Shown: positions 27,626 through 64,000 of the stretch, in pieces | How the letters are laid out: each line of letters opens with the position of its first letter | Position numbering within the stretch: the stretch's first letter is position 1 | Assembly: GCF_964355755.1 (NCBI RefSeq) | Contig: NC_092670.1 | Coordinates: 18,289,201-18,353,200, forward strand | From: Antedon mediterranea | Lineage: Eukaryota; Echinodermata; Crinoidea; Comatulida; Antedonidae | DNA length: 64,000 nt | Reading direction: 5' to 3' | The notes under the pieces: model-generated | Databases searched by the model: none | Seen by the model: only the letters and a program-made list of their open reading frames with translations | What the model was told of the DNA's origin: nothing | Made by a program: the position numbers and the translations under genes

Positions 27626-30600
27626 ATGATTGAAAGTGTCCAACAAATTTATTCACGAAAACATCTAGTTATTTATGTTTGTTGTATTTTCTGGTTACAA
27701 TGTATTTCAGGTATGTGGATTACTTATTACTTTATTCAATATTCAAGTTAATTAAACTACAGAAACATTAGTATTAAGCATTTGTTATATAGTTTTTAAG
27801 TCCAAGTAGTACGTTTCGTTAGTGAACGGCCAGGGTACCTAGATAGAGAAACAATGATTTACGCGCGCGTTCAAATGTTGATAATTTGTACGTACGCGCG
27901 CGTTCAAATGTTGATAATTTATACGTACGCGCGCGTCAATTTCGTGTTTCATTTTATCAATTTTTTTACGTAATTAGGTGACACAGACGTTTGTGATTTT
28001 GAGACAAATCAGTGTGGGTACACTCGAGACGACACCGGCTTCGCCAAGTGGTTCAGGAATTATGGTCCGTCCTGGTTGAGGAGTACAATGGGGACGACTG
28101 GACCCGCAACTGACCACACTGAAGGGGCTGGTAAGTTTGTATAGAGCCCACACTATCATTTTTTGAATGAAGAGGAGTGGTGGTAGAATGAAAGTCCGTA
28201 ATATGGACACTCGAAAAAAACAAAACTATAAATTGTTTTCCCTTTAATCTTTTGTTTTGTTTCCTCGAAATGATTATCGAAACTAAAATTGTCAGAAACA
28301 ATGATACACTTATAATTTATTTCGATTTTTTATGGATTACCAACATGGTTTTAGCGGATTTTTATACAATAACGCATATTCATTTTTCATTATTTACTGA
28401 ATATTAATTTAAAGAAACACTTTGACCAAATCACATTTATTTTTACAGAAACCGGTTTTTATATGGTGATGTTGAACATCCCCAACCTTTATGTATACGA
28501 CCCGGGGGACAAAGCACGTATTGTGTCACAATGCTACCCAGGAAGTCGCACAGTTGACGTCTCATTTTACTACCACATGTACGGGGACGGTATCGGACAA
28601 CTGAACGTCTTCCTTGTTGACTGCAGCCTTGCATCGTCTCTCGGACTATCGGTAATTAGTCTATCTGGTGATCAAGGTGACGAATGGAAGTTGGCTGGAT
28701 TCTCACAGGCTAATGTAGGAGAATTCAGGGTAAATAATTATAAAGCTTTTAGGCCTACACGAAAGATTTCTATCATTGTATTCTCCTTGTTGATCATGTA
28801 ACATCAGCTTATAATTGTAATCAAAAATAGCAGGGCTTCCCTGGTAATAATATAGATCATCTGTATGATTCGAGATTTTTTTAACGGGGAAGCGCCGAAA
28901 GCGTACTATCAAATAGTCTGTCAAAAATAGATATTAAAAAGTGACGTCATTTTAGCTGTGAAACAGGAGGGGCACGGTCAATGGTTAACCCCCTCCCCCA
29001 ATATGTTAAGCCTATATAAATAGCCCGATATTATTTATTTTTTAAAGGTTTTGTTTGAGGCAGTTCGTGGGCCAACTAACAACAGCGATATTGCCATTGA
29101 TGACATAACTGTAGAAAGTGAGTTGGAATTGATTTTCGCTTTGAGTAGTACAAGATTTTAATATAAAGTACGGTAATTAAAAGCTTTGTTATAAAGATGT
29201 AGAACCTGCAATTATTTCTTTTCTTTTAAACCAGGAACAGAGACAAATGCAGTCACAAACCCACAGGATTATTTAGATGAAGGTAAGTATGTAGGCCTAT
29301 TAAAATAATTGTTGTCGCCACCTAACGCTATGTTAAATTTGTATCCATTTTGTGTCCATAAATAATCTTAAATGTTGATTTACTATGAAATAAAAACGAA
29401 TTACGTCGAAAAAACAGTTTAATTCCCAATTAAGCCTGTTACAAGGTGAATGTAGGCCTATATTACGTGAATTGAAACGTCAGCATGCGAATCTTTTATT
29501 TCAATCTCTTTTTTGCGATGAGAAAAAATGCGCAACCAAAGTTTTAAAATAGGTTTTTGTCTTGAGTAAATACTATTTTATTAAACTAAATTGTTAACAA
29601 TCGTGTTTGGCCATTTTTACTTGTTTGTAGCTTCTGTAGTATGCACGTTTGAAATAGATCCATGTGGGTACGTACAAGACAAAACAGACGACACTGATAT
29701 GATATACAACCACGGGACATCATGGCTTCGGCAAGTGGACGGGTCAACTGGTCCCACAAGTGACCACACCAATGGGATAGGTAAGAAGAGCGTGGCATCG
29801 GAAGGTAGAAATGTTCGAAAAAATCGGATCGAATTATTAAGCTTTGTTTCTGCTTAGACCACATCGGATATTTTGACCCATCATAACGCATGCGTTGCGC
29901 CTACGACATTGCGCTCGTCCAAAGGTGGAAACGAAGCTTTAGAAATGAAGGGCGTTGGTCTTTTTTAAATGCAAAACGCGGTGCGCGCGGCACATACGTT
30001 AATCGAGCAACGTTTTAACGTCATTAGCGTGCCATAGCCCAACAGTTTTAATATTTTCATCTTTCATTTCCAGAAACAAACTTCTATATGATCTTAATGA
30101 ATGTTCCCGGCCTGATAGACTTACAGCCTGAGGACAAAGCTCGTCTTATATCACCGTGTTACACAATTTCGTCATGGGTGCGAATTCAATTTTTCTACCA
30201 CATGTACGGAGTGGGAATGGGGACGTTAAATGTGTATTCGTCAAATTGTGAGCAATTTTCGGAGAAAAGAATTTTAATCAGTATATCTGGTAATCAAGGC
30301 GATGAATGGAGAGAAGGTAGTAGAACCGCACATGCGGAAGGTGGAGTTCAGGTAAAAATAAGATCACTTTTATCACATAATAAAGTTTCAGAAGCATAAA
30401 AGAGAACAGCCGGACCTTATAACCCTCTGCTTAACAGTTTTTTAAAAATCTTTAATTGTTTTAGTTCACATTTGAAGCTGTACGTGGATCAGATTATACC
30501 AGCGATATTGCAATAGATGACATCGCCCTCTACGGTAGGTTAAACACGAACTTTTTTTAGTTAAGTGTGCCACAAGGCAATCTAACAGGACACTGAGCTC

Positions 30601-40300: not shown

Positions 40301-41785
40301 TTTTATTCCGAAAAAACGGAGGTATCTTAATTTTGTTTTAACAAATAGATAGGCTTACTATATACAGTTTTAAATAGAGTTGGTTAATATAGATATCTTA
40401 GTTTTAAAATAATATTTAAATTCCGATGTTTATACATTCAGCAGAAAATAAAGATATCTTCTTTAAAATAGAAATCTAAAAGAAAATTACTGAAGAGATA
40501 TATCCTTTGAATATGAGATATCTCTTTATTAATAAACTAATCTTTAGATGTCTTTGTTGTAAAAATATGGTTATTTGCGAATAAATGACAGTTTGGCGCG
40601 CCATAGCCATGAGATTGATTTACAGGTCAATTAAGAAAAGTCATTTTGACAGTAATTACAAATTGTCTATGTAGGCCTATATCTGCAGCAGGTGAATTGA
40701 GAAGGTTGATGGTGGGAAAGTTTTTCTTCTAAAAATCCTCAGAAATTGTATTTATTGTATAAATGTATCAATTAATGTTCTCTTATGGTTCATTTCATTA
40801 TTTATTCGGTCTATTCCAATAGGCCTATACATAACAAACAAAAACTGAAATTGGGGAGACCAGCGTCAACCTAAGTATACTAATTACTGTAGCTGAGCCG
40901 GTTGTAATGTTTACAGTTGAATTTTAATTATTCAATCTACTCGTTTTAGCATTCTCTATTGTTATACCATAATGAAATAATTTTTTTTTAAAAAGAGCTT
41001 GTTTTAGACTCAAAATTTTTTTTTCTATTTTAACAACGAATATTCTAAAAAGAGCAAATGTCTTACCAAAAACCCGAAAGCGGAGCCCATTTCGTCTTTA
41101 ATATCAGATAAAGCTTATAGCTATATATATATACGATGTATATATTATGTAGGTAGGTCTAAACATTAATTTAGTATTTCTTAGAAACCATCAAAATATT
41201 CTACTGCAGTAATAAATTATTAATATTGTTTTTGTTTCCTCTATAACATTGTTTATACAATTATTTAGCAAACTTGTTAAATTAAAACTACACTAAAATC
41301 ATACGTTCAGTAAAAAATGTAGTTACTGCAGTTACCGCGGTAGAATAATGTTGAAATTGAAAAATAAAAAAGAATATAATTTTATATCATATCGTAGGCC
41401 TGTGTTTTAATTATGCATTAGTAGATAAAAGCTAATCAAATTTTAATATGTATTAAATATGTATGCTAATGTTTTTAAAATCCACGAAAATTATCATTGC
41501 GTGCGCAGACGATCCGCCTACTCTCACGTGACCCTGTGATTACTAGACGGGAAGTTGATTCCACGCTGTATTGTTGATTTATACAATTACGATCATAAAG
41601 TAGTTTCAGCTACTACTACCACAGCTGTGCTCGCTAAATCCTATCGTTCACTTGCCTTCATCGTCGGAAATAACAACACCAAAACGTGATCATTTACATT
41701 CAACCATTAATCAAAAAGAACACAAAAATTGGAGGAAAAAGCGAATAGAGAAAAGAGAATACGTTCGCGATTAGTTTCATCAACG

Positions 41786-42271
41786 ATGTCAAAACGAAAA
41801 TATTCTAAAGATTCTGTATCATCAGATGTTGAAATTATAGACACTTTTGATTCTGGGAGCGAAGGTTCGTCATCCTCGGATCCAGATAAAGCGAACAGTC
41901 GTATAAATAGGAAAAGAAAGAATACGATGTACGATTTGAATTTAAATATAAATAACACACAGAATGTGATTCACGAGGAGAGGCCGCGATGTGCCGCAAA
42001 CGCCCGCGAGAGAGACCGTACGCACAGTGTAAACAGTGCATTCCATGCGCTGCGTGGACTTATCCCTACAGAACCAGCCGATAGGAAATTGTCGAAAATC
42101 GAAACTTTGAGATTGGCTACGAGTTATATCAACCATCTAGGAACAGTGTTATTAGTGGGTAATGAGAATATAGACCAGCCGTGCATGCACAGACCACTTT
42201 ACAGACCAACTTGTGATAATTCCCCAAGAACCATCTGCACATTTTGTCTCAGTCACCGTGCCAATAAACTT
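41786..42271 (+). CDS. Scleraxis/paraxis (TCF15) family bHLH factor, main exon
   Basis: Class II (Twist-related) bHLH transcription factor that would bind E-boxes as a dimer with an E protein. The exon encodes 162 residues from the first in-frame ATG; the frame is closed by a TAA upstream of 41729. Residues 10-35 are Ser/Asp-rich. The bHLH spans about 70-122: [20 protein letters not shown] (basic and helix 1), [18 protein letters not shown] (loop and helix 2). ICTFCLSH (150-157) is the C-terminal motif shared by vertebrate scleraxis and TCF15. The exon ends CTT followed by GTAAGT, as in vertebrate genes where a short last exon follows this motif. Sequence alone does not decide between the two paralogues; an invertebrate may have a single pre-duplication gene. 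Family role: mesoderm, tendon or skeletal connective tissue. Confidence 0.9.
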
Positions 42272-45200
42272 GTAAGTATGAACATACATTAGTATATTCT
42301 AGTATTAATCCAAATGCACTGAACAAACAAGTACTGAAAGAAATGGCAATGCTTAGAATATATGTTGTGGCTGAATCTCAATGATGGAGATACAAATAAA
42401 AATACTGTAAGAAAAAAGCGAAACAGCCACAAGTGCATATACTTAAGAATTGGCTGCGAATAATTCATACATAAAATAAACAAAACATCGTCTACATGTT
42501 TTTAGGAAGAAAAAAGAGGACTTAGGTATACTGTGTATGTTTAAATGCCTAAACAAGTTATGTGTACTTATTTCATTTGTATCTCAATTGAGATTCAGCA
42601 ATTGTCCCACATCATTGTCATTTTCAGTATAGTTTTGCCTTTCATTTGTTTAAACATTGTCATATCACCAATGACAGGAAAAATAAAATGAATATACAGA
42701 CGCTTTGATCTAAAGTTAAAATTAAGACTTTTTTATGTTTGTCCTTTTTTAAACGTTCTTTGTAACATCTTAAAACTATAATATTATTAGTAAACTCTCT
42801 TTAGTTTATATAATGTAATTTGCATACTTGCCATGATTATTGGCTGGCTATTGATTATTGATTAATAATTGATTGTTTGTTGATAATATTTTCCTTTTTA
42901 TAATATCTATAGATATAGAAATAGGAAATATTTGTTAAACAATAGAAACTTGGCTATACAAGTATAATTTCCCTTAAAAGTTAGTTTCTTTCCAATCGTA
43001 TAATAACTCTTCTCTGGTATAATACTAATAATACTAGTTACATTTTCTACTATTGTAAAACACTCATATGGACACTTTACATAATATGAATTTCCTGTAC
43101 AACAACCAGATCAATGCTCTCTTGGTTTAATCCAGTTAATGTCAAGAGTATGTTCAACAAATGTTCTAATATTAAAACTTAACCTCAGCGTTTGCTTGGC
43201 ATGTTAAAATAAACTTAAAATCGTTACTTTTGGCAAACTTATCTGATTTGTTTCGCAATAGTGGTACCATGCCGAACAATCGGTATCATATTTTAATCCA
43301 ATGGATAATCCTCATAGCAGGTGATGATCTGTATTGATAGGGTTTAATGATAATCCCCTATGATATTAAGGAGGTCATGGCTATAATATTAACAGTAGGC
43401 CTACCCTATTTCTGGTAATTGTAATATCGTTATTTACGTTATTACCGCTGTCCTCTGTTGATATTGTTTTTTGTTACTTTGGTTATCATTTATATTTTGT
43501 ACATATTTTAGTTTAAGTTCCCTTGTAAATAGGCCTATCGTTAAATCCTTTTTTTTACTCTGGGCACAGCTTCAAGAGGGTTTTCACACTGTTTCAAAAG
43601 TGTAGATTCCAAATAACTTATTATATTATATTGAATCAACGGGGGTGCATAAGACTGAGATACTTAGGCCTATATGCATTACGTTTAGTTAGTTTTCGGA
43701 TTAATTTTGTATCTTTAAACAGTAATTAAACACATTCATGTTAACGAAGAAGAAATATTCCCTTATAACATAGGATACCTCCAACAATCATGTTTACCTT
43801 CTACAATTAAATATGCCATAGGGCAGGACAGGTTTACCCTGGATACCGCTACATCCCTGGATAATAAAGATAAGATAGGCCTATAATCCTATAGGAATAA
43901 TTGTACAGAACCTAATACACAATAGCCTATTGTAGTATAACTGTGTGCTTTGTTAAACCATTACTCACAGTTTAATATCACAATACAGATATGCGTGGCG
44001 GATTACAACAGTTATTATATGAAAATGAACTTTGATATAATGAATCATCGTTTGTATTGTTGTCAAGATTATCTGATAATTTTTATCCAAGTTTTCGTTA
44101 GTCGTCAGGAAGAAACTCTTTATTTCTTTAGCTGAAGCATAACCGCCTTTATTATCATATTATTCATTCTAAGTTTTTTTTTTAGCATGCAAATGCATTG
44201 TTCCGGAACTTTAAGACATGTGTATTGTTATGTTTAGGTATAAGGCCTAGGTTTAACAATAGATCAGAACATTTTTCTTTTGTATAACCATGAAAGAATT
44301 AAATAAGTATTGGTACCAACCAGGCCCCTATAACATTGTAGTTGTTAAAATCCAATTATTCACCATAGCTGATTTTATTGGTCATTAGCCTGCAATATAT
44401 CGTATAGATAAAACTTTATTCTAAGGCTAATCTTTAAACTCAGGGGTTGCTATCCTATTTACGATAGTGTATTAAATTAGTTTTTTCCTGAGAACCTTGG
44501 AGTTAAATTAAGGTTAGAAATGTTAACCAAGATATGGAATTTGACTTCGAATGAAAGAAATTTTTTTTAATGGATAGAACAAAGGGATAAGATATAAAAA
44601 GGCAATTTACGAGTAGGCCTGTGTTATGCTTATACCATGAAGGAAACTCACCCCTGCTTTAACAAATCACATTTTTGTTTAAATGCAACTGGGTGTAACA
44701 AAACAATATACGATTTTTAATGTTGAATACCATGGTAAAGTATCATGGCATCTCATACCGTACACATTACATAACCGTGCATGCAAGACACAGTCACTCT
44801 TTTATCTAACGTACAGGTTACACATCTGAAGATCCACTAAACTTCAGATAAAATAATAGTGAAACTCCAAAATAAAGTGACAAAACATTCCGATCTACAC
44901 ATTAAGATTTTATAGATTAATTATTAATTGAATTGTCAATAATTAGTTTATAATTAAAATTTATTTAAAGATGTTACAACAAAACCATAGCGGCTATATC
45001 TATGAATAAAACCCAGGTGACCGGAAGTCTTTAATTGATACATCGCCATTTGGACAATTAATTATTAATCAAACTGAGAAATCAAGGCTACTCCTAAGTG
45101 ACCAAAAGGAAGTGGGTCGCAGTCATTCCATAAAAATTAAACACTCCGACAAATTGACCACTGTCGGTCTCTTTGTGGCTAATTACCTTCAGATTTTAAG

Positions 45201-45579: not shown

Positions 45580-45639
45580 GCTGAAATAACCCAAAATGAA
45601 TATTTGAAGGTCCCTTGTTCAAGCAATCTCATTTCAGCA
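45580..45639 (+). pseudogene. Decayed tRNA-Phe copy
   Basis: 60 nt starting GCTGAAATA and ending ATTTCAGCA. The 3' half TTTGAAGGTCCCTTGTTCAA matches tRNA-Phe, but the D arm and part of the anticodon arm are lost. The acceptor ends still pair (GCTGAAA with TTTCAGC). It lies 165 bp before the intact copy, in the same orientation. Confidence 0.7.
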
Positions 45640-45744: not shown

Positions 45745-45750
45745 GCCGAA

Positions 45751-45800
<50 letters not shown>

Positions 45801-45817
45801 AATCCCGGGTTTCGGCA
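45745..45817 (+). tRNA. tRNA-Phe (GAA), solo copy
   Basis: 73 nt without intron or encoded CCA. Acceptor GCCGAAA pairs with TTTCGGC, discriminator A. D stem GCTC/GAGC; anticodon stem TCAGA/TCTGA around loop CTGAAGA, anticodon GAA. T arm CCTGG-TTCAATC-CCGGG; B box GGTTCAATCC. A six-T Pol III terminator starts 3 nt after the gene. Identical to eight units of the minus-strand array 11 kb away. Confidence 0.97.
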
Positions 45818-45930
45818 TATTTTTTAACGATATTTTTTAGTGCATTATTTTATCTACGATCACTCACACCGTTTGAAGTAAGATTTTTAGCGTAATATTC
45901 GTTTAATGTAGATTTCTTTTCTCAAAAAAT

Positions 45931-45986
45931 GGCTTTAGTGTGGAGAGCGTCAGAATGAATATCCACTTCACTTCCGGGTTTCAGCA
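45931..45986 (+). pseudogene. Decayed tRNA-Phe copy
   Basis: Recognisable words GGAGAGCGTCAGAATGAATAT and CCGGGTTTCAGCA keep tRNA-Phe order, but the acceptor 5' strand, D stem and T arm are damaged. About 185 bp after the intact copy, in the same orientation. Confidence 0.65.
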
Positions 45987-52624: not shown

Positions 52625-53160
52625 CTCTCACTGATTGTAGAGAACCATGGAGTAATATAGTAATTAGTTTACAGGAAATGTATTTTGAGATTGATTACAT
52701 TTTAAAACAAAATCTATCATAAAACAGGACAGTTGCTGAGATTCATTCAGTAAAACTGTTTCGTTCTTTTTGCCTTTATTATTATCAAATCTCACTGATT
52801 GTAAAACCATGGAGTATAGTAATAGTAATTAGTTTAAAGTGTATGTATTTTGAGATTGATTGCATTTTAAAACAAAATCTATCATCAACAGTCGATGAGG
52901 TTCGCTCAGTAAAACTGTTTCGTTCTTTTTGCCTTTATTATCGATAAGCAATCTCACTGATTGTAAAATCATGGAGTATTAGTAATTAGTTTACAGTGTA
53001 TGTATTTTGAGATTGATTGCATTTTAAAACAAAATCTATCATAAACAGTCGATGAGGTTCGCTCAGTAAAACCAGGGAAGAGTTAAATTTAACTCTTCCC
53101 TGGTAAAACTGTTTCGTTTTTTTGCCTTTATTATCGATAAGCAATCTCATTGATTGTAGA
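52625..53160. repeat. Tandem duplication, about 165-bp unit, three copies
   Basis: TCTCACTGATTGTA recurs near 52625, 52790 and 52953, and once more as TCTCATTGATTGTA near 53147. Each unit carries TTTTGAGATTGATTGCATTT, AACAAAATCTATCAT, CAGTAAAACTG and TTTTTGCCTTTATTAT. The third unit is longer because of the palindromic insertion at 53072. Confidence 0.88.
53072..53103. mobile_element. 32-bp perfect palindrome with 5-bp target duplication
   Basis: CCAGGGAAGAGTTAAA is followed directly by its exact reverse complement. The palindrome is flanked on both sides by TAAAA, which is single in the sister repeat units (CAGTAAAACTG). It is therefore a clean insertion made of two inverted ends with no interior. 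Confidence 0.85.
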
Positions 53161-56690: not shown

Positions 56691-56722
56691 GTCTGACGCT
56701 CTCCCAACTGAGCTATTTCGGC
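56691..56722 (-). pseudogene. Half tRNA-Phe at the array edge
   Basis: Exactly the first 32 nt of the tRNA (acceptor 5' strand, D arm, 5' side of the anticodon stem) and nothing of the rest. It marks the 3'-most (in tRNA sense) boundary of the array. Confidence 0.85.
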
Positions 56723-56845
56723 AGTTGAAAAATGCCGTCTATTCTTAAAATAATATTGTAGACCCACAGATCAAAACAATAAATGAAAAATTGTGGTTAT
56801 CTTTGAATGATGAAATAAATGCAAGAAAAATTTTTTCTTAATAGT

Positions 56846-56862
56846 TGCCGAAACCCGGGATT

Positions 56863-56912
<50 letters not shown>

Positions 56913-56918
56913 TTCGGC
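56846..56918 (-). tRNA. tRNA-Phe (GAA), array unit 1
   Basis: Identical to the solo copy at 45745. A long T-run (AAGAAAAAATTTTT on the minus strand) follows within 20 nt and would end transcription. Confidence 0.95.
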
Positions 56919-57068
56919 TGTTGATTATTGCAATCTACAGTATTATTAAAAGCAATATTTAAGGCCTACCGATTTAAAGAAAATAAAATAAAAAGATAAA
57001 ACCAAACTATACACGTTATCTTTTAAAGTTGATAAAATTAATTCAATGAAAAAGATATTCCTGATATA

Positions 57069-57133
57069 TGCCGAAACCCGGGATTGAACCAGGGACTTTC
57101 AGTCTGACGCTCTCCCAACTGAACTATTTCGGC
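57069..57133 (-). pseudogene. tRNA-Phe unit 2, anticodon arm deleted
   Basis: 65 nt; eight bases of the anticodon arm are missing (GTCAGACTGAAAGTCCC), plus a C-to-T change in the D stem. It cannot fold a normal anticodon arm. Confidence 0.9.
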
Positions 57134-57259
57134 AGTTGAAAAATGCAGTATATCATCGAAAACAATATTTATAGGCCTACTGATAAAAACAATAAACGAA
57201 AATATTATGGACTTTGAAAGTTGATGAAGTAAATGGAAAAAAAAAGTATTCTTGATAGT

Positions 57260-57332
57260 TGCCGAAACCCGGGATTGAACCAGGGACCTTCATATCTTCA
57301 CTCTGACGCTCTCTCAAATGAGCTATTTCGGC
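57260..57332 (-). pseudogene. tRNA-Phe unit 3, four substitutions
   Basis: Anticodon GAA is kept, but position 32 is G, the anticodon stem has one mismatch (TCAGA/TATGA) and the D loop has two changes. Probably not functional, though not certain. Confidence 0.55.
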
Positions 57333-57456
57333 AGTCGAAAAAAAGCAGTATATCATTGAAAACAATATTTTAGGCCTATTGATTAAAAAATAGACGAAAA
57401 TACTATGGATATCTTTGAAAGTTGATAAAATAAATGAAAAAGATATTCTTGATAGT

Positions 57457-57529
57457 TGCCGAAACCCGGGATTGAACCAGGGACCTTCAGCTCTTAAGTC
57501 TGACGCTCTCCGAACTGAGCTGTTTCGAC
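57457..57529 (-). pseudogene. tRNA-Phe body with TAA anticodon, unit 4
   Basis: The anticodon loop reads CTTAAGA, so the anticodon is TAA (Leu UUA codon) in a tRNA-Phe body. The stem has a mismatch at 31-39, and the acceptor start is GTCGAAA. Likely a pseudogene. Confidence 0.7.
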
Positions 57530-57654
57530 AGTTAAAAAATGCAGTCTATTATTAAAACCAATATTTAGGCTTACTGATAAAAACAATAAACGAAAATATT
57601 ATGGATATATTTGAAAGTTGATGAAGTAAATGGGAATAAAATATTCTTGATAGT

Positions 57655-57678
57655 TGCCGAAACCCGGGATTGAACCAA

Positions 57679-57721
<43 letters not shown>

Positions 57722-57727
57722 TTCGGC
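57655..57727 (-). tRNA. tRNA-Phe (GAA), array unit 5
   Basis: One change (C to T at position 50 in the T stem), still able to pair as G-U. Confidence 0.85.
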
Positions 57728-57875
57728 AGTTGAAAGATGCAGTCTATTATTAAAAACAATATTTAGTCCTACCGATTTTAAAAAAAAATAAATTAAAAAA
57801 AAAACCCGAACTATAATACACGTCATCTTTTAAAGTTGATAAAATAAATTCAATGAAATAGATATTCCTGATTTA

Positions 57876-57905
57876 TGCCGAAACCCGGGATTGAACCAGG
57901 GACCC

Positions 57906-57942
<37 letters not shown>

Positions 57943-57948
57943 TTCGGC
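57876..57948 (-). tRNA. tRNA-Phe (GAA), array unit 6
   Basis: A single A-to-G change at the start of the variable loop; all stems intact. Long-type spacer on its 3' side. Confidence 0.87.
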
Positions 57949-58086
57949 AGTTAAAAAAAGCAGTATATCATTAAAAAACAATATTTAGGCATACTGATTT
58001 AAAAAAAAATAAAATAAACCCGACCAATAAACGATATCTTTGAAAGTTGATAAAATAAATTCAATGAAAAAGATATTCCTGATAGA

Positions 58087-58159
58087 TGGCGAAACCCGAG
58101 ATTGAACCAGGGACCTTCACATTTTCTGTCTGACGCTTTCCCAACTGAGGTATTTCGGC
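58087..58159 (-). pseudogene. Diverged tRNA-Phe subfamily, unit 7
   Basis: Anticodon GAA is kept, but the loop is CAGAAAA, with A in place of the invariant T33. The D stem is CCTC/AAGC with two mismatches, the anticodon stem and acceptor have one each, and there is a CTCGGG T-stem change. Confidence 0.75.
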
Positions 58160-58294
58160 AGTTAAAAAATGCAGTATATCATTGAAAACAATATTTAGGC
58201 TTACTGATTTAAAAAAAAAATAAAATAAACCCGACAAAACGATATCTTTGAAAGTTGATAAAATAAATTCAATGAAAAAGATATTCATGATAGT

Positions 58295-58311
58295 TGCCGA
58301 AACCCGGGGTT

Positions 58312-58361
<50 letters not shown>

Positions 58362-58367
58362 TTCGGC
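58295..58367 (-). tRNA. tRNA-Phe (GAA), array unit 8
   Basis: Differs from the solo copy only by T59C in the T loop (TTCAACC). The same variant is found in units 10 and 12. Confidence 0.92.
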
Positions 58368-58505
58368 AGTTTAAAAAAGCAGTATATCATTAAAAAACAA
58401 TATTTAGGCATACTGATTTAAAAAAAAATAAAATAAACCCGACCAATAAACGATATCTTTGAAAGTTGATAAAATAAATTCAATGAAAAAGATATTCCTG
58501 ATAGA

Positions 58506-58578
58506 TGGCGAAACCCGGGATTGAACCAGGGACCTTCACATTTTCTGTCTGACGCTTTCCCAACTGAGGTATTTCGGC
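58506..58578 (-). pseudogene. Diverged tRNA-Phe subfamily, unit 9
   Basis: Same lesions as unit 7 (A33, damaged D stem, acceptor mismatch) except that the T stem is normal. Part of a duplicated two-unit block with unit 10. Confidence 0.75.
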
Positions 58579-58717
58579 AGTTGAAAAATGCAGTATATCA
58601 TTGAAAACAATATTTAGGCCTACTGATTTAAAAAAAAAAATAAAATAAACCCGACCAATAAACGATATCTTTGAAAGTTGATAAAATAAATTCAATGAAA
58701 AAGATATTCATGATAGT

Positions 58718-58734
58718 TGCCGAAACCCGGGGTT

Positions 58735-58784
<50 letters not shown>

Positions 58785-58790
58785 TTCGGC
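58718..58790 (-). tRNA. tRNA-Phe (GAA), array unit 10
   Basis: Carries only the T59C change. Confidence 0.92.
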
Positions 58791-58915
58791 AGTTAAAAAA
58801 TGCAGTCTATTATTAAAAACAATATTTAGGCCTACTGATCAAAACAATAAACGAAAATATTATGGATATATTTGAAAGTTGATGAAATAAATGGGAATAA
58901 AATATTCTTGATAGT

Positions 58916-58932
58916 TGCCGAAAACCGGGATT

Positions 58933-58982
<50 letters not shown>

Positions 58983-58988
58983 TTCGGC
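58916..58988 (-). tRNA. tRNA-Phe (GAA), array unit 11
   Basis: One substitution, G65T, which opens the first base pair of the T stem (49-65); otherwise identical. Confidence 0.75.
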
Positions 58989-59126
58989 AGTTGAAAAATG
59001 CAGTATATCATTGAAAGCAATATTTAGGCCTACTGATTTTTAAAAAAAATAAAATAAACCCGACCAATAAACGATATCTTTGAAAGTTGATAAAATAAAT
59101 TCAATGAAAAAGATATTCATGATAGT

Positions 59127-59143
59127 TGCCGAAACCCGGGGTT

Positions 59144-59193
<50 letters not shown>

Positions 59194-59199
59194 TTCGGC
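59127..59199 (-). tRNA. tRNA-Phe (GAA), array unit 12
   Basis: Carries only the T59C change. Confidence 0.92.
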
Positions 59200-59323
59200 A
59201 GTTAAAAAATGCAGTCTATTATTAAAACAATATTTAGGCCTACTCATCAAAACAATAAACGAAAATATTATGGATATATTTGAAAGTTGATGAAATAAAT
59301 GGGAATAAAATATTCTTGATAGT

Positions 59324-59340
59324 TGCCGAAACCCGGGATT

Positions 59341-59390
<50 letters not shown>

Positions 59391-59396
59391 TTCGGC
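59324..59396 (-). tRNA. tRNA-Phe (GAA), array unit 13
   Basis: Identical to the solo copy. Its plus-side neighbour has lost its tRNA. Confidence 0.95.
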
Positions 59397-59591
59397 AGTT
59401 GAAAAATGCAGTATATCATTGAAAACTATATTTAGGCCTACTGATTTAAAAAAAAAAAATTTCGTCAGTTAAAAAATGCAGTCTATTATTAAAAACAATA
59501 TTTAGGCCTACTGATAAAAACAATAAACGAAAATATTATGGATATATTTGAAAGTTGATGAAGTAAATGTGAATAAAATATTCTTGATAGT

Positions 59592-59608
59592 TGCCGAAAC
59601 CCGGGATT

Positions 59609-59658
<50 letters not shown>

Positions 59659-59664
59659 TTCGGC
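59592..59664 (-). tRNA. tRNA-Phe (GAA), array unit 14
   Basis: Identical to the solo copy. 268 bp from unit 13 because of the collapsed unit between them. Confidence 0.95.
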
Positions 59665-59812
59665 AGTTGAAAGATGCAGTCTATTATTAAAAACAATATT
59701 TAGTCCTACCGATTAAAAAAAAAAATAAATTTAAAAAAAAACCCGAACTATAATACACGTCATCTTTTAAAGTTGATAAAATAAATTCAATGAAAAAGAT
59801 ATTCCTGATTTA

Positions 59813-59829
59813 TGCCGACACCCGGGATT

Positions 59830-59879
<50 letters not shown>

Positions 59880-59885
59880 TTCGGC
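59813..59885 (-). tRNA. tRNA-Phe (GAA), array unit 15
   Basis: One change in the acceptor 3' strand (T67G), giving an A-G mismatch in the acceptor stem; possibly weakened. Confidence 0.7.
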
Positions 59886-60022
59886 AGTTAAAAAATGCAG
59901 TATATCATTAAAAAACAATATTTAGGCATACTGATTTAAAAAAAATAAAATAAACCCGACCAATAAACGATATCTTTGAAAGTTGATAAAATAAATTCAA
60001 TGAAAAAGATATTCCTGATAGA

Positions 60023-60095
60023 TGGCGAAACCCGGGATTGAACCAGGGACCTTCACATTTTCTGTCTGACGCTTTCCCAACTGAGGTATTTCGGC
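60023..60095 (-). pseudogene. Diverged tRNA-Phe subfamily, unit 16
   Basis: Identical in sequence to unit 9, 1.5 kb away, which shows that the broken form was copied along with the block. Confidence 0.78.
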
Positions 60096-60233
60096 AGTTA
60101 AAAAATGCAGTATATCATTGAAAACAATATTTAGGCCTACTGATTTTTAAAAAAAATAAAATAAACCCGACTAATAAACGATATCTTTGAAAGTTGATAA
60201 AATAAATTCAATGAAAAAGATATTCATGATAGT

Positions 60234-60250
60234 TGCCGAAACCCGGGATT

Positions 60251-60300
<50 letters not shown>

Positions 60301-60306
60301 TTCGGC
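60234..60306 (-). tRNA. tRNA-Phe (GAA), array unit 17
   Basis: Identical to the solo copy. Confidence 0.95.
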
Positions 60307-60430
60307 AGTTAAAAAATGCAGTCTATTATTAAAACAATATTTAGGCCTACTCATCAAAACAATAAACGAAAATATTATGGATATATTTGAAAGTTGATGA
60401 AGTAAATGGGAATAAAATATTCTTGATACT

Positions 60431-60447
60431 TGCCGAAACCCGGGATT

Positions 60448-60497
<50 letters not shown>

Positions 60498-60503
60498 TTC
60501 GGC
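60431..60503 (-). tRNA. tRNA-Phe (GAA), array unit 18
   Basis: Identical to the solo copy; TTTT lies 14 nt past the 3' end. Confidence 0.95.
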
Positions 60504-60642
60504 AGTTGAAAAATGCAGTATATCATTGAAAACAATATTTAGGCCTACTGATCTTTAAAAAAAAATAAAATAAACCCAACCAATAAACGATATCTTTGAA
60601 AGTTGATAAAATAAATTCAATGAAAAAGATATTCCTGATTGA

Positions 60643-60715
60643 TGCCGAAACCTGGGATTGAACCAGGGCCCTTCAGATCTTCAGGCTGACGCTCTCCCAA
60701 CTGAGCTATTTCGGC
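60643..60715 (-). tRNA. tRNA-Phe (GAA)-like, array unit 19, three changes
   Basis: The T stem is fully paired (CCTGG/CCAGG), but A31C opens the last anticodon stem pair and the variable loop is changed (AGGGC). Function uncertain. Confidence 0.55.
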
Positions 60716-60840
60716 AGTTAAAAAATGCAGTCTATTATTAAAAACAATATTTAGGCATACTGATAAAAACAATAAACGAAAATATTATGGATATATTTGA
60801 AAGTTGATGAAGTAAATGGGAATAAAATATTCTTGATACT

Positions 60841-60857
60841 TGCCGAAACCCGGGATT

Positions 60858-60907
<50 letters not shown>

Positions 60908-60913
60908 TTCGGC
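60841..60913 (-). tRNA. tRNA-Phe (GAA), array unit 20
   Basis: Identical to the solo copy. Confidence 0.95.
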
Positions 60914-61051
60914 AGTTAAAAAATGCAGTATATCATTAAAAAACAATATTTAGGCATACTGATTTAAAAAAAAATAAAATAAACCCGACCAATAAACGAT
61001 ATCTTTGAAAGTTGATAAAATGAATTCAATGAAAAAGATATTCCTGATAGA

Positions 61052-61124
61052 CGCCTAAACCCGGGATTGAACCAGGGCCCGTCAGATCTTCAGGCTGACG
61101 CTCTCCCAACTGAGCTATTTCGGC
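61052..61124 (-). pseudogene. tRNA-Phe unit 21, multiple lesions
   Basis: Discriminator base changed to G, acceptor mismatch (C69A), A31C in the anticodon stem as in unit 19, and variable-loop changes. Probably inactive. Confidence 0.65.
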
Positions 61125-61249
61125 AGTTAAAAAATGCAGTCTATTATTAAAAACAATATTGAGGCATACTGATAAAAACAATAAACGAAAATATTATGGA
61201 TATATTTGAAAGTTGATGAAGTAAATGGGAATAAAATATTCTTGATACT

Positions 61250-61322
61250 TGCCGAAACCCGGGATTGAACCAGGAACCTTCAGATCTTCAGTCTGATGCT
61301 CTCCCAACTGAGCTATTTCGGC
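61250..61322 (-). tRNA. tRNA-Phe (GAA), array unit 22
   Basis: Two changes: G26A and C48T (the usual partner of G15). Stems are intact. Confidence 0.7.
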
Positions 61323-61461
61323 AGTTGAAAGATGCAGTCTATTATTAAAAACAATATTTTAGGCCTACTGATTTAAAAAAAAAATAAAATAAACCCGACC
61401 AATAAATGATATCTTTGAAAGTTGATAAAATAAATTCAATGAAAAAGATATTCCTGATTGA

Positions 61462-61478
61462 TGCCGAAACCCGGGATT

Positions 61479-61528
<50 letters not shown>

Positions 61529-61534
61529 TTCGGC
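61462..61534 (-). tRNA. tRNA-Phe (GAA), array unit 23
   Basis: Identical to the solo copy. Its plus-side spacer contains a pure A run of about 20 bp. Confidence 0.95.
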
Positions 61535-61680
61535 AGTTGAAAGATGCAGTCTATTATTAAAAACAATATTTAGACCTACCGATTTAAAAAAAAAAAAAAA
61601 AAAAAAAACCCCGAACTATAATACACGTTATCTTTTAAAGTTGATAAAATAAATTCAATGAAAAAGATATTCCTGATATA

Positions 61681-61697
61681 TGCCGAAACCCGGGATT

Positions 61698-61735
<38 letters not shown>

Positions 61736-61753
61736 AAACTGAGCTATTTCGGC
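61681..61753 (-). tRNA. tRNA-Phe (GAA), array unit 24
   Basis: One D-loop change (AGTTTGGA in place of AGTTGGGA), leaving two adjacent G residues. Confidence 0.82.
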
Positions 61754-61891
61754 AGTTAAAAAATGCATTATATCATTCAAAAACAATATTTAGGCCTACT
61801 GATTTAAAAAAAAAAATAATAAACCCGACCAATAAACGATATCTTTGAAAGTTGATAAAATAAATTCAATGAAAAAGATATTCCTGATAGA

Positions 61892-61924
61892 TGCCGAAAC
61901 CCGGGATTGAACCAGGGAGCTTCT

Positions 61925-61958
<34 letters not shown>

Positions 61959-61964
61959 TTCGGC
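61892..61964 (-). pseudogene. tRNA-Phe-like unit 25, three changes
   Basis: The anticodon stem has a central A-A mismatch (TCAGA/TCAGA) and the variable loop is altered. Anticodon GAA is kept. Function doubtful. Confidence 0.5.
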
Positions 61965-62085
61965 AATTAAAAAATGCAGTCTATTATTAAAAACAATATT
62001 TAGGCTTACTGATCAAAACAATAAACGAAAATATTATGGATATACTGTATTTGAAAGTAAATGGGAATAAAATATTCTTGATAGT

Positions 62086-62154
62086 TGCCGAAACCCGGGA
62101 TTGAACCAGGGACCTTCAGATCTTCAGTCTGAGGCTCTCCCAAGCTATTTCGGC
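62086..62154 (-). pseudogene. tRNA-Phe unit 26, D-arm deletion
   Basis: 69 nt: four bases of the D arm are missing and GCG is changed to GCC. The D arm cannot form. Confidence 0.85.
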
Positions 62155-62279
62155 AGTTAAAAAACGCAGTCTATTATTAAAAACAATTTTTAGGCCTACT
62201 GATAAAAACCATAAACGAATATATTATGGATATATTTGAAAGTTGATGTAGTAAATGGGAATAAAATATTCTTGATAGT

Positions 62280-62296
62280 TGCCGAAACCCGGGATT

Positions 62297-62346
<50 letters not shown>

Positions 62347-62352
62347 TTCGGC
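62280..62352 (-). tRNA. tRNA-Phe (GAA), array unit 27
   Basis: Identical to the solo copy; last intact unit on the right side of the array. Confidence 0.95.
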
Positions 62353-63214
62353 AGTTGAAAGATGCAGTCTATTATTAAAAACAATATTTTAGGTCTACCG
62401 ATTAAAAAAAAACCAAGAAGAAACAAAAAGAAACTGTAAACAATATCAGATACGGTAGTTCATAAAGTAAATTCAATCTCAAGGATATTCCTAATTATAA
62501 TGTACCAGCGACCTTAACAATTAGGAAATATCAACTTTTTGGTAATAATTAATTTACCGGAAATAATAAAGGTAAAAAAGTGACGCTTTTGAATTTTCCC
62601 CGTGTAAACAATTAAAGTTCATTTCTAATTATGTGTAATTTGTAGGCCTATTTTCGGAAAATTGTCGGCGAAAGGTATACATGAAACTGGTCAAATTTCC
62701 AATTCTTTAGGCCGCCGCTAGAATGACACCCAACAGCAAAAGCTGTCTTCAAGTACCGTCTTGTCTCGATCTTTGTTAAGAGCTTAATGTGTTTGTTACC
62801 CGTATACATCGACTCCGATAACATCAAAGATATTAACCGATAGTCAGACTATTATGATTTTTTGAAGTCTGAGGTTCCGCTCAAAAATGTTCAATTACAA
62901 ATTATGATGGTACCATTACGGTACCAGTATGTTTTCTAACAATTAGGATGGTACATCATGACACATGATATCTTGGTTTCGTCTATGTTGTACTAGGCCT
63001 AGTTTGTATCTTGTGACAAAGTATAATATAATCTTTTTTTTATTATCCTAATAATAATATTAATTCTTATTTTTGTTTTACATATAACATAATTATATAT
63101 AAAAACACAATGATACTACAAAATAAAATCAGTAACAACTATAGAATGTAATTCGTCACGTTGGCGAATCATAGGTGATTATTTTCATAATTAATTTTAC
63201 TGCTATATTATACT
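62353..63214. other. Right edge of the tRNA array and flanking sequence
   Basis: The first 140 bp are a decayed array spacer (AATATTTTAGGTCTACCGAT ... GGATATTCCTAATT), followed at about 62501 by GTACCAGCGACCTTAACA, which may be the worn remains of a further tRNA (compare GAACCAGGGACCTTCAGA). Beyond that I see nothing until the retrotransposon. Confidence 0.6.
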
Positions 63215-64000
63215 TTGTATGTAAACATTGGCATTAGCATTGGCACGCCACAAGGGTCTGTTATCTCCCCAATGTTGTTTTCACTGTTCACCAGCAGTTT
63301 CAGAGCCAATTCAAATGAATGTTGTATAGTAAAATATGCAGATGACACAGTCATCACTGGATACATTACTGGCAATGATGAAACAAGCTATAGACAACTA
63401 GGATGTGATTTTTATCACTGGTGCTGCAATAACAACCTGAAACTAAACATAAAGAAAACAAAAGAAATGCAAATTGATTTTAGGAAAATTAAAGAACCCT
63501 TAGAACCTCTGATTATAAATGAAAATGAGATTGAAGTAGTAAATGAGTACAAATATCTGGGTTGTATAATTGACAATAAGCTAAATTGGATAAATAATGT
63601 AAATAAAGCCACATGCAAAGCCAACCAAAGGATGTTTATTTTAAGAAAAATGAAGTACCTACAAATTGACAAACTATACTTAAATTGTTTTATAACTCTG
63701 TAATTCTCAGTGTAATACTTTTTTGTAATGTTTGTTTTTATGGTAATACAATGCAAAAAGATAAAATTAAACTTAATCGAATAGGAAATAGAGCAATTAG
63801 ACTAGTAGGAGAGCACTTACCTGATGTTGAATCCTTGTATAAAGAAAATGTGTTAAAAAAAGTAAAAAGTATCATTGATGATGAAACACATCCTCTTCAC
63901 AAACAATTTGCTCTCATGAATTCTGGCATAAGACTACGTGCACTTAATACCAAAACAAAACGGTTTAGGTGCTCGTTTGTACCTAATGCTATACACTTAT
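63215..64000 (+). mobile_element. CR1/L2-like non-LTR retrotransposon, 3' part of the RT ORF
   Basis: Reverse transcriptase palm and thumb region: GTPQGSVISPMLFSLFT, then VKYADDTVITGY with the catalytic YADD, LKLNIKKTKEMQIDFRK and YKYLGCIIDNKLNW. The first frame ends at the TAA at 63701. The protein continues in another frame from about 63688 (FYNSVILSVILF ... IGNRAIRLVGEHLPDVESLY ... RFRCSFVPNAI), so there is one frameshift, and it runs off the window end. The endonuclease and N-terminal RT are absent upstream, as expected for a 5'-truncated copy. Inactive. Confidence 0.88.

What the first reader, a model, noticed from the sequence alone, without database searches (positions are those of the whole stretch)
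56691..62352. Tandem array of 27 tRNA-Phe units in 5.7 kb
One isoacceptor, one orientation, near-regular spacing. Eight units are identical to a solo gene 11 kb away, while interspersed units are visibly broken. Identity over the tRNA with divergence among spacers suggests recent amplification or homogenisation together with selection on some copies. Arrays of tRNA genes are known in other animals (for example Xenopus and zebrafish), but a pure tRNA-Phe array with mixed functional and dead units is worth describing.
Basis: partly seen in the sequence, partly recalled or inferred. Interest (0 to 1): 0.72.

Follow-up and report, generated by a model that had tools for sequence, protein, structure and literature searches.

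The report
tRNA-Phe gene array, half decayed
An animal chromosome carries 27 head-to-tail copies of the gene for phenylalanine tRNA, about half of them broken, but the same genome holds larger arrays of this and other tRNA genes, so this is a tidy example of a known kind of gene array and not something new.

Summary
The array (56691 to about 62412, minus strand) has 27 tRNA-Phe(GAA) units and a 28th cut to its first 32 nt. Exactly 8 units match the solo gene at 45745-45817, six more keep a sound cloverleaf, and 13 are damaged.

The genome has two more tRNA-Phe arrays (81 and 31 units) and single-isotype arrays or clusters of other tRNAs. The solo gene is not independent: its flanks match array spacers and decayed tRNA-Phe fragments lie beside it.

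The array grew by block duplication. The clearest case is a 1.94-kb, nine-unit tandem duplication (94% identical) with its junction in the odd long spacer at 59457/59460. Dead units were copied with live ones. Since then tRNA and spacer have diverged equally (3.1% vs 3.7%), so no selection on single copies is visible. Long-term constraint is supported by identical tRNAs at five loci with different flanks.

Homogeneous tRNA arrays are described in Hydractinia, Nematostella and some fishes. Verdict: a new member of a known kind, modest interest. Transcription was not tested and the species was not identified.

The parts
56691..62412 (-). whole tandem array of tRNA-Phe units
   Evidence: (TRF)
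56691..56722 (-). truncated 28th unit: tRNA-Phe positions 1-32 with its 5' flank, at the downstream edge of the array
   Evidence: edge sequence
56846..56918 (-). u27: tRNA-Phe identical to the solo gene although its downstream spacer is only 53-83% identical to the other spacers
57069..57529 (-). u26-u24: decayed edge units (8-nt anticodon-region deletion in u26; broken anticodon stem and changed invariant bases in u25 and u24)
57523..59457 (-). second copy of the 1.94-kb block (u15-u23)
59460..61384 (-). first copy of the 1.94-kb block (u6-u14), 94% identical to the second
59445..59475 (.). junction of the block duplication: poly-A/T tract fused to the first nucleotides of a tRNA-Phe, making the 195-bp spacer of u14
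58087..58159 (-). u21, dead variant (four broken stem pairs, invariant T33 changed, plus C61T); the same dead variant is u19 (58506-58578) and u12 (60023-60095)
62280..62352 (-). u1, first unit in transcription order, identical to the solo gene
45745..45817 (+). solo tRNA-Phe(GAA), opposite orientation
45597..45622 (+). decayed tRNA-Phe fragment upstream of the solo gene (88% over tRNA positions 33-58)
45927..45963 (+). decayed tRNA-Phe fragment downstream of the solo gene (81% over tRNA positions 5-40)

Best explanation
This is a homogeneous nuclear tRNA-Phe(GAA) gene array. Each unit of about 190-220 bp has the layout of a complete Pol III gene: an AT-rich upstream flank, a tRNA with internal A and B boxes, and a T-run usually 14-16 nt downstream. 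The array grew by tandem duplication of units and blocks (most simply unequal exchange; the nine-unit block and its junction are visible), with local conversion spreading variants. Copies are redundant, so single units mutate and die freely, and dead ones are copied along with live ones, while enough intact units persist to supply tRNA-Phe. Shown: the array, the block duplication, the damage, long-term conservation of the tRNA. Inferred: transcription of the intact units, and unequal crossing over rather than slippage or another route.
For: Unit structure, spacing and T-runs. 1.94-kb nine-unit tandem duplication with junction at 59457/59460. Alternating spacer types, with the least similar spacers mostly at the low-coordinate (downstream) edge, as unequal exchange predicts. 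Same dead variant three times. tRNA/spacer diversity ratio 0.32. Identical tRNA copies at five loci with different flanks: this array 8, solo 1, C1 17.6 Mb 12, C3 33.26 Mb 8, C3 36.5 Mb 1. Same behaviour in the sister array on C1: 12 of 81 identical to consensus, one five-mutation dead variant in 8 copies.
Against: No transcription data. No reads, so the unit count and the 94% block could be affected by assembly, including two haplotypes joined end to end. The equal tRNA and spacer divergence since the block duplication gives no sign of present selection on single units.
Confidence: 0.85

Rival explanations
1. The array is mainly a tRNA-derived satellite: it persists by recombination alone, and the tRNA supply comes from other loci.
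For: 13 of 27 units damaged; tRNA and spacer diverged equally since the block duplication; other intact tRNA-Phe copies exist elsewhere; the Lys array has a tRNA/spacer ratio of 0.74, closer to neutral.
Against: Eight units are perfect and six more sound; the edge unit u27 is perfect beside a diverged spacer; overall ratio 0.32; T-runs kept downstream of all units.
Confidence: 0.13
2. tRNA identity is kept by gene conversion limited to the tRNA part, not by selection.
For: Variants have spread locally (T59C in u16, u18, u20; A31C and T47G in u7 and u9; the dead variant in u12, u19, u21).
Against: The three dead units have nearly identical downstream spacers (98-99%), so the copied tracts are not limited to the tRNA; conversion would have to act between chromosomes to keep five loci identical.
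Confidence: 0.12
3. Part of the array is an assembly artefact: two haplotypes joined end to end, giving the 94% block duplication.
For: The two copies are adjacent and differ by about 3-5%, which a highly heterozygous animal could reach; the junction is not at a unit boundary.
Against: The array has many distinct units (17 distinct tRNAs), and other arrays on this and other chromosomes have the same organisation. An artefact would shorten the array, not remove it.
Confidence: 0.12

Closest known systems
ncRNA tandem arrays of Hydractinia (PMC11067881)
   Different: Different animal as far as can be told; block-duplication history and share of damaged units could not be compared here.
Homogeneous tDNA clusters, survey of Bermudez-Santana et al. 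2010 (PMC2888827), for example Nematostella, zebrafish, stickleback
   Same: Neighbours within 1000 nt, same isoacceptor, mostly parallel; clusters of 50 or more members and clusters with interspersed pseudogenes are reported.
   Different: Nothing in kind; the species of this window was not identified.
Entamoeba tRNA gene arrays (PMC2652664)
   Same: tRNA genes in tandem arrays.
   Different: There up to five tRNA genes per unit with short tandem repeats between; here one tRNA per unit.
Human 1q23.3 tRNA variable number tandem repeat (PMC4041453)
   Same: tRNA genes in a tandem repeat with many units.
   Different: There 7.3-kb units with five tRNA genes and CTCF binding; here about 0.2-kb units with one tRNA gene.

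Membership tests
Homogeneous tDNA cluster (PMC2888827) | neighbouring tDNAs within 1000 nt | tested here: met
   spacing 190-268 bp
Homogeneous tDNA cluster (PMC2888827) | all tDNAs of one isoacceptor family | tested here: met
   all 22 ARAGORN calls in the array are Phe(GAA)
Hydractinia-type tandem ncRNA array (PMC11067881) | evenly spaced, highly similar tandem copies, tens or more | tested here: met
   27 units, median spacing 211 bp
Hydractinia-type tandem ncRNA array (PMC11067881) | arrays for all amino acids in the genome | tested here: inconclusive
   arrays or clusters seen for Phe, Lys (two anticodons), Cys, initiator Met, His and a small one for Asp; His is in mixed orientation; other isotypes not sought
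Entamoeba tRNA array | several different tRNA genes per unit | tested here: not met
   one tRNA-Phe per unit
tRNA-derived SINE | many dispersed copies with tRNA head plus unrelated body and tail | tested here: not met
   matches lie in clusters; dispersed ones are few, with the limit that only the best candidates are scored
Functional Pol III tRNA gene | transcription by Pol III | not testable with these tools
   no expression data

The most novel reading that the evidence does not exclude
In this animal many tRNA genes are kept as satellite-like, single-isotype arrays in which single copies evolve almost neutrally and selection acts on the array as a whole (number of live units), with dead units spread by block duplication.
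Probability: 0.25. Interest if true: 0.45.

Novelty: new member of a known kind. Interest (0 to 1): 0.28.

Why it matters
The array is a clean small case for studying how redundant tRNA genes turn over: it shows a traceable block duplication, a re-copied dead variant and sister arrays with other spacers as controls. It also corrects the idea that such an array is rare: in this genome it is one of several, and not the largest.

Tried and rejected
tRNA-derived SINE: rejected because matches are clustered. Solo gene as independent reference: rejected because its flanks match array spacers over about 40 bp on each side and decayed tRNA-Phe fragments lie beside it. Per-copy purifying selection since the last block duplication: tested, not seen. 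Literature searches for tRNA arrays in amphioxus and echinoderms gave nothing useful.

Full report
Observation. The window lies in an animal genome of 354 Mb in 18 contigs, at C1:18289201-18353200; the species was not identified. The array is real: TRF 56691-62412 with periods 211 and 409, 22 ARAGORN tRNA-Phe(GAA) on the minus strand, 26 Rfam tRNA matches above the gathering score in the array. Alignment gives 27 full units, u1 (62280-62352) to u27 (56846-56918) in transcription order, and a 28th cut to tRNA positions 1-32 at 56691-56722. The unit that falls below the Rfam cut-off is u21.

State of the units. The consensus has no broken stem pair. Eight units are identical to the solo gene, six differ but keep all stem pairs and the checked invariant bases, and 13 are damaged. 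A T-run of four or more lies downstream of every unit, at +14 to +16 in all but u22, where it is at +32; in AT-rich DNA this alone is weak evidence, but the position is regular.

Growth of the array. Spacers fall into an A type (about 125 nt) and B and C types (about 138 and 148 nt). A and B often alternate, which explains the 409-bp period. The clearest high-identity self match pairs 59460-61384 with 57523-59457, 94.1% over 1941 columns, so the copies are adjacent. Unit by unit, u6-u14 pair with u15-u23. The junction lies in the abnormal 195-bp spacer of u14 and joins a poly-A/T tract to the first nucleotides of a tRNA. One pair, u10/u19, does not fit: u10 is perfect with an A spacer, u19 is dead with a B spacer, so one of them was replaced later. 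The dead variant is found in u12, u19 and u21; T59C in u16, u18 and u20; A31C with T47G in u7 and u9. This is local spreading of variants, dead ones included. The least similar spacers are mostly at the low-coordinate (downstream) edge, as unequal exchange predicts.

Selection. Across all units the tRNA is 0.32 as diverse as the spacer (95% bootstrap 0.20-0.48); in the sister arrays the ratio is 0.53 (C1, 17.6 Mb), 0.25 (C3, 33.26 Mb) and 0.74 (Lys, C8). Between the two block copies, leaving out u10/u19, tRNA and spacer differ equally: 18/577 and 41/1114, P = 0.68. Both can hold: copies decay freely over a short time, while intact copies win over a long time (inference). u27 is perfect although its spacer is 17% or more different from every other; if the tRNA had diverged as the spacer did, zero changes in 73 would have P about 1e-6, with the caveat that conversion could also do this.

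Relatives in the genome. Exact tRNA-Phe copies: 8 here, 1 solo, 12 in an 81-unit array at C1:17.61-17.63 Mb, 8 in a 31-unit array at C3:33.26 Mb, 1 at C3:36.50 Mb. Their flanks differ apart from a short leader ending in AACT in many copies and T-runs downstream. The C1 sister array repeats the pattern, with a five-mutation dead variant in 8 copies. Other single-isotype clusters: Lys-UUU on C8 (229 matches, spacing about 175 bp), Lys-CUU on C3, Cys on C2, initiator Met on C11 and C1, His on C1 in mixed orientation, and a small Asp cluster on C11 (isotype inferred from the query).

The solo gene. Its flanks match array spacers over about 40 bp on each side, and decayed tRNA-Phe fragments lie at 45597-45622 and 45927-45963, about 180 bp from the matching parts of the gene. 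It is best read as the survivor of a small decayed array (inference).

Comparison with what is known. Homogeneous tDNA clusters are described, as are clusters of 50 or more members and a cluster with interspersed pseudogenes (PMC2888827). Hydractinia has evenly spaced tandem arrays of tRNAs for all 20 amino acids (PMC11067881). Entamoeba arrays and the human 1q23.3 repeat differ in unit make-up. This is a new member of a known kind.

Limits. No reads, no expression data, no related genome. Genome searches score only the best candidates, so counts are lower bounds. The cloverleaf test counts base pairs and a short list of invariant bases; it does not prove function.

Noticed in passing
G000:C8:23626001-23676000 (L050-L054): Very large tRNA-Lys(UUU) array, about 229 matches at 175-bp spacing, with the tRNA almost as diverse as its spacer (ratio 0.74).
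   Followed up: partly
G000:C1:17612001-17632000 (L037, L038): Sister tRNA-Phe array of 81 units about 0.7 Mb away; 11 units are read by ARAGORN with anticodon AAA, part of a co-amplified damaged variant (C13T, G18 deleted, G34A, G64T, G70A).
   Followed up: partly
G000:C2:14174001-14189000 (L042, L043): tRNA-Cys(GCA) array, 82 ARAGORN calls on one strand.
   Followed up: no
G000:C11:15183361-15199706 and C1:37159536-37164270: Two arrays matching initiator tRNA-Met at about 148-bp spacing.
   Followed up: no
G000:C1:11501537-11508976: tRNA-His cluster with units in both orientations, unlike the Phe arrays.
   Followed up: no
window 63191-63703: Reverse transcriptase fragment (RVT_1, E = 8e-13), about 800 bp beyond the array end.
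   Followed up: no
window 28373-30399 and 41711-42289: Open frames with MAM domains and a helix-loop-helix domain elsewhere in the window.
   Followed up: no
window 52626-53072: Unrelated 157-bp tandem repeat, 2.8 copies.
   Followed up: no
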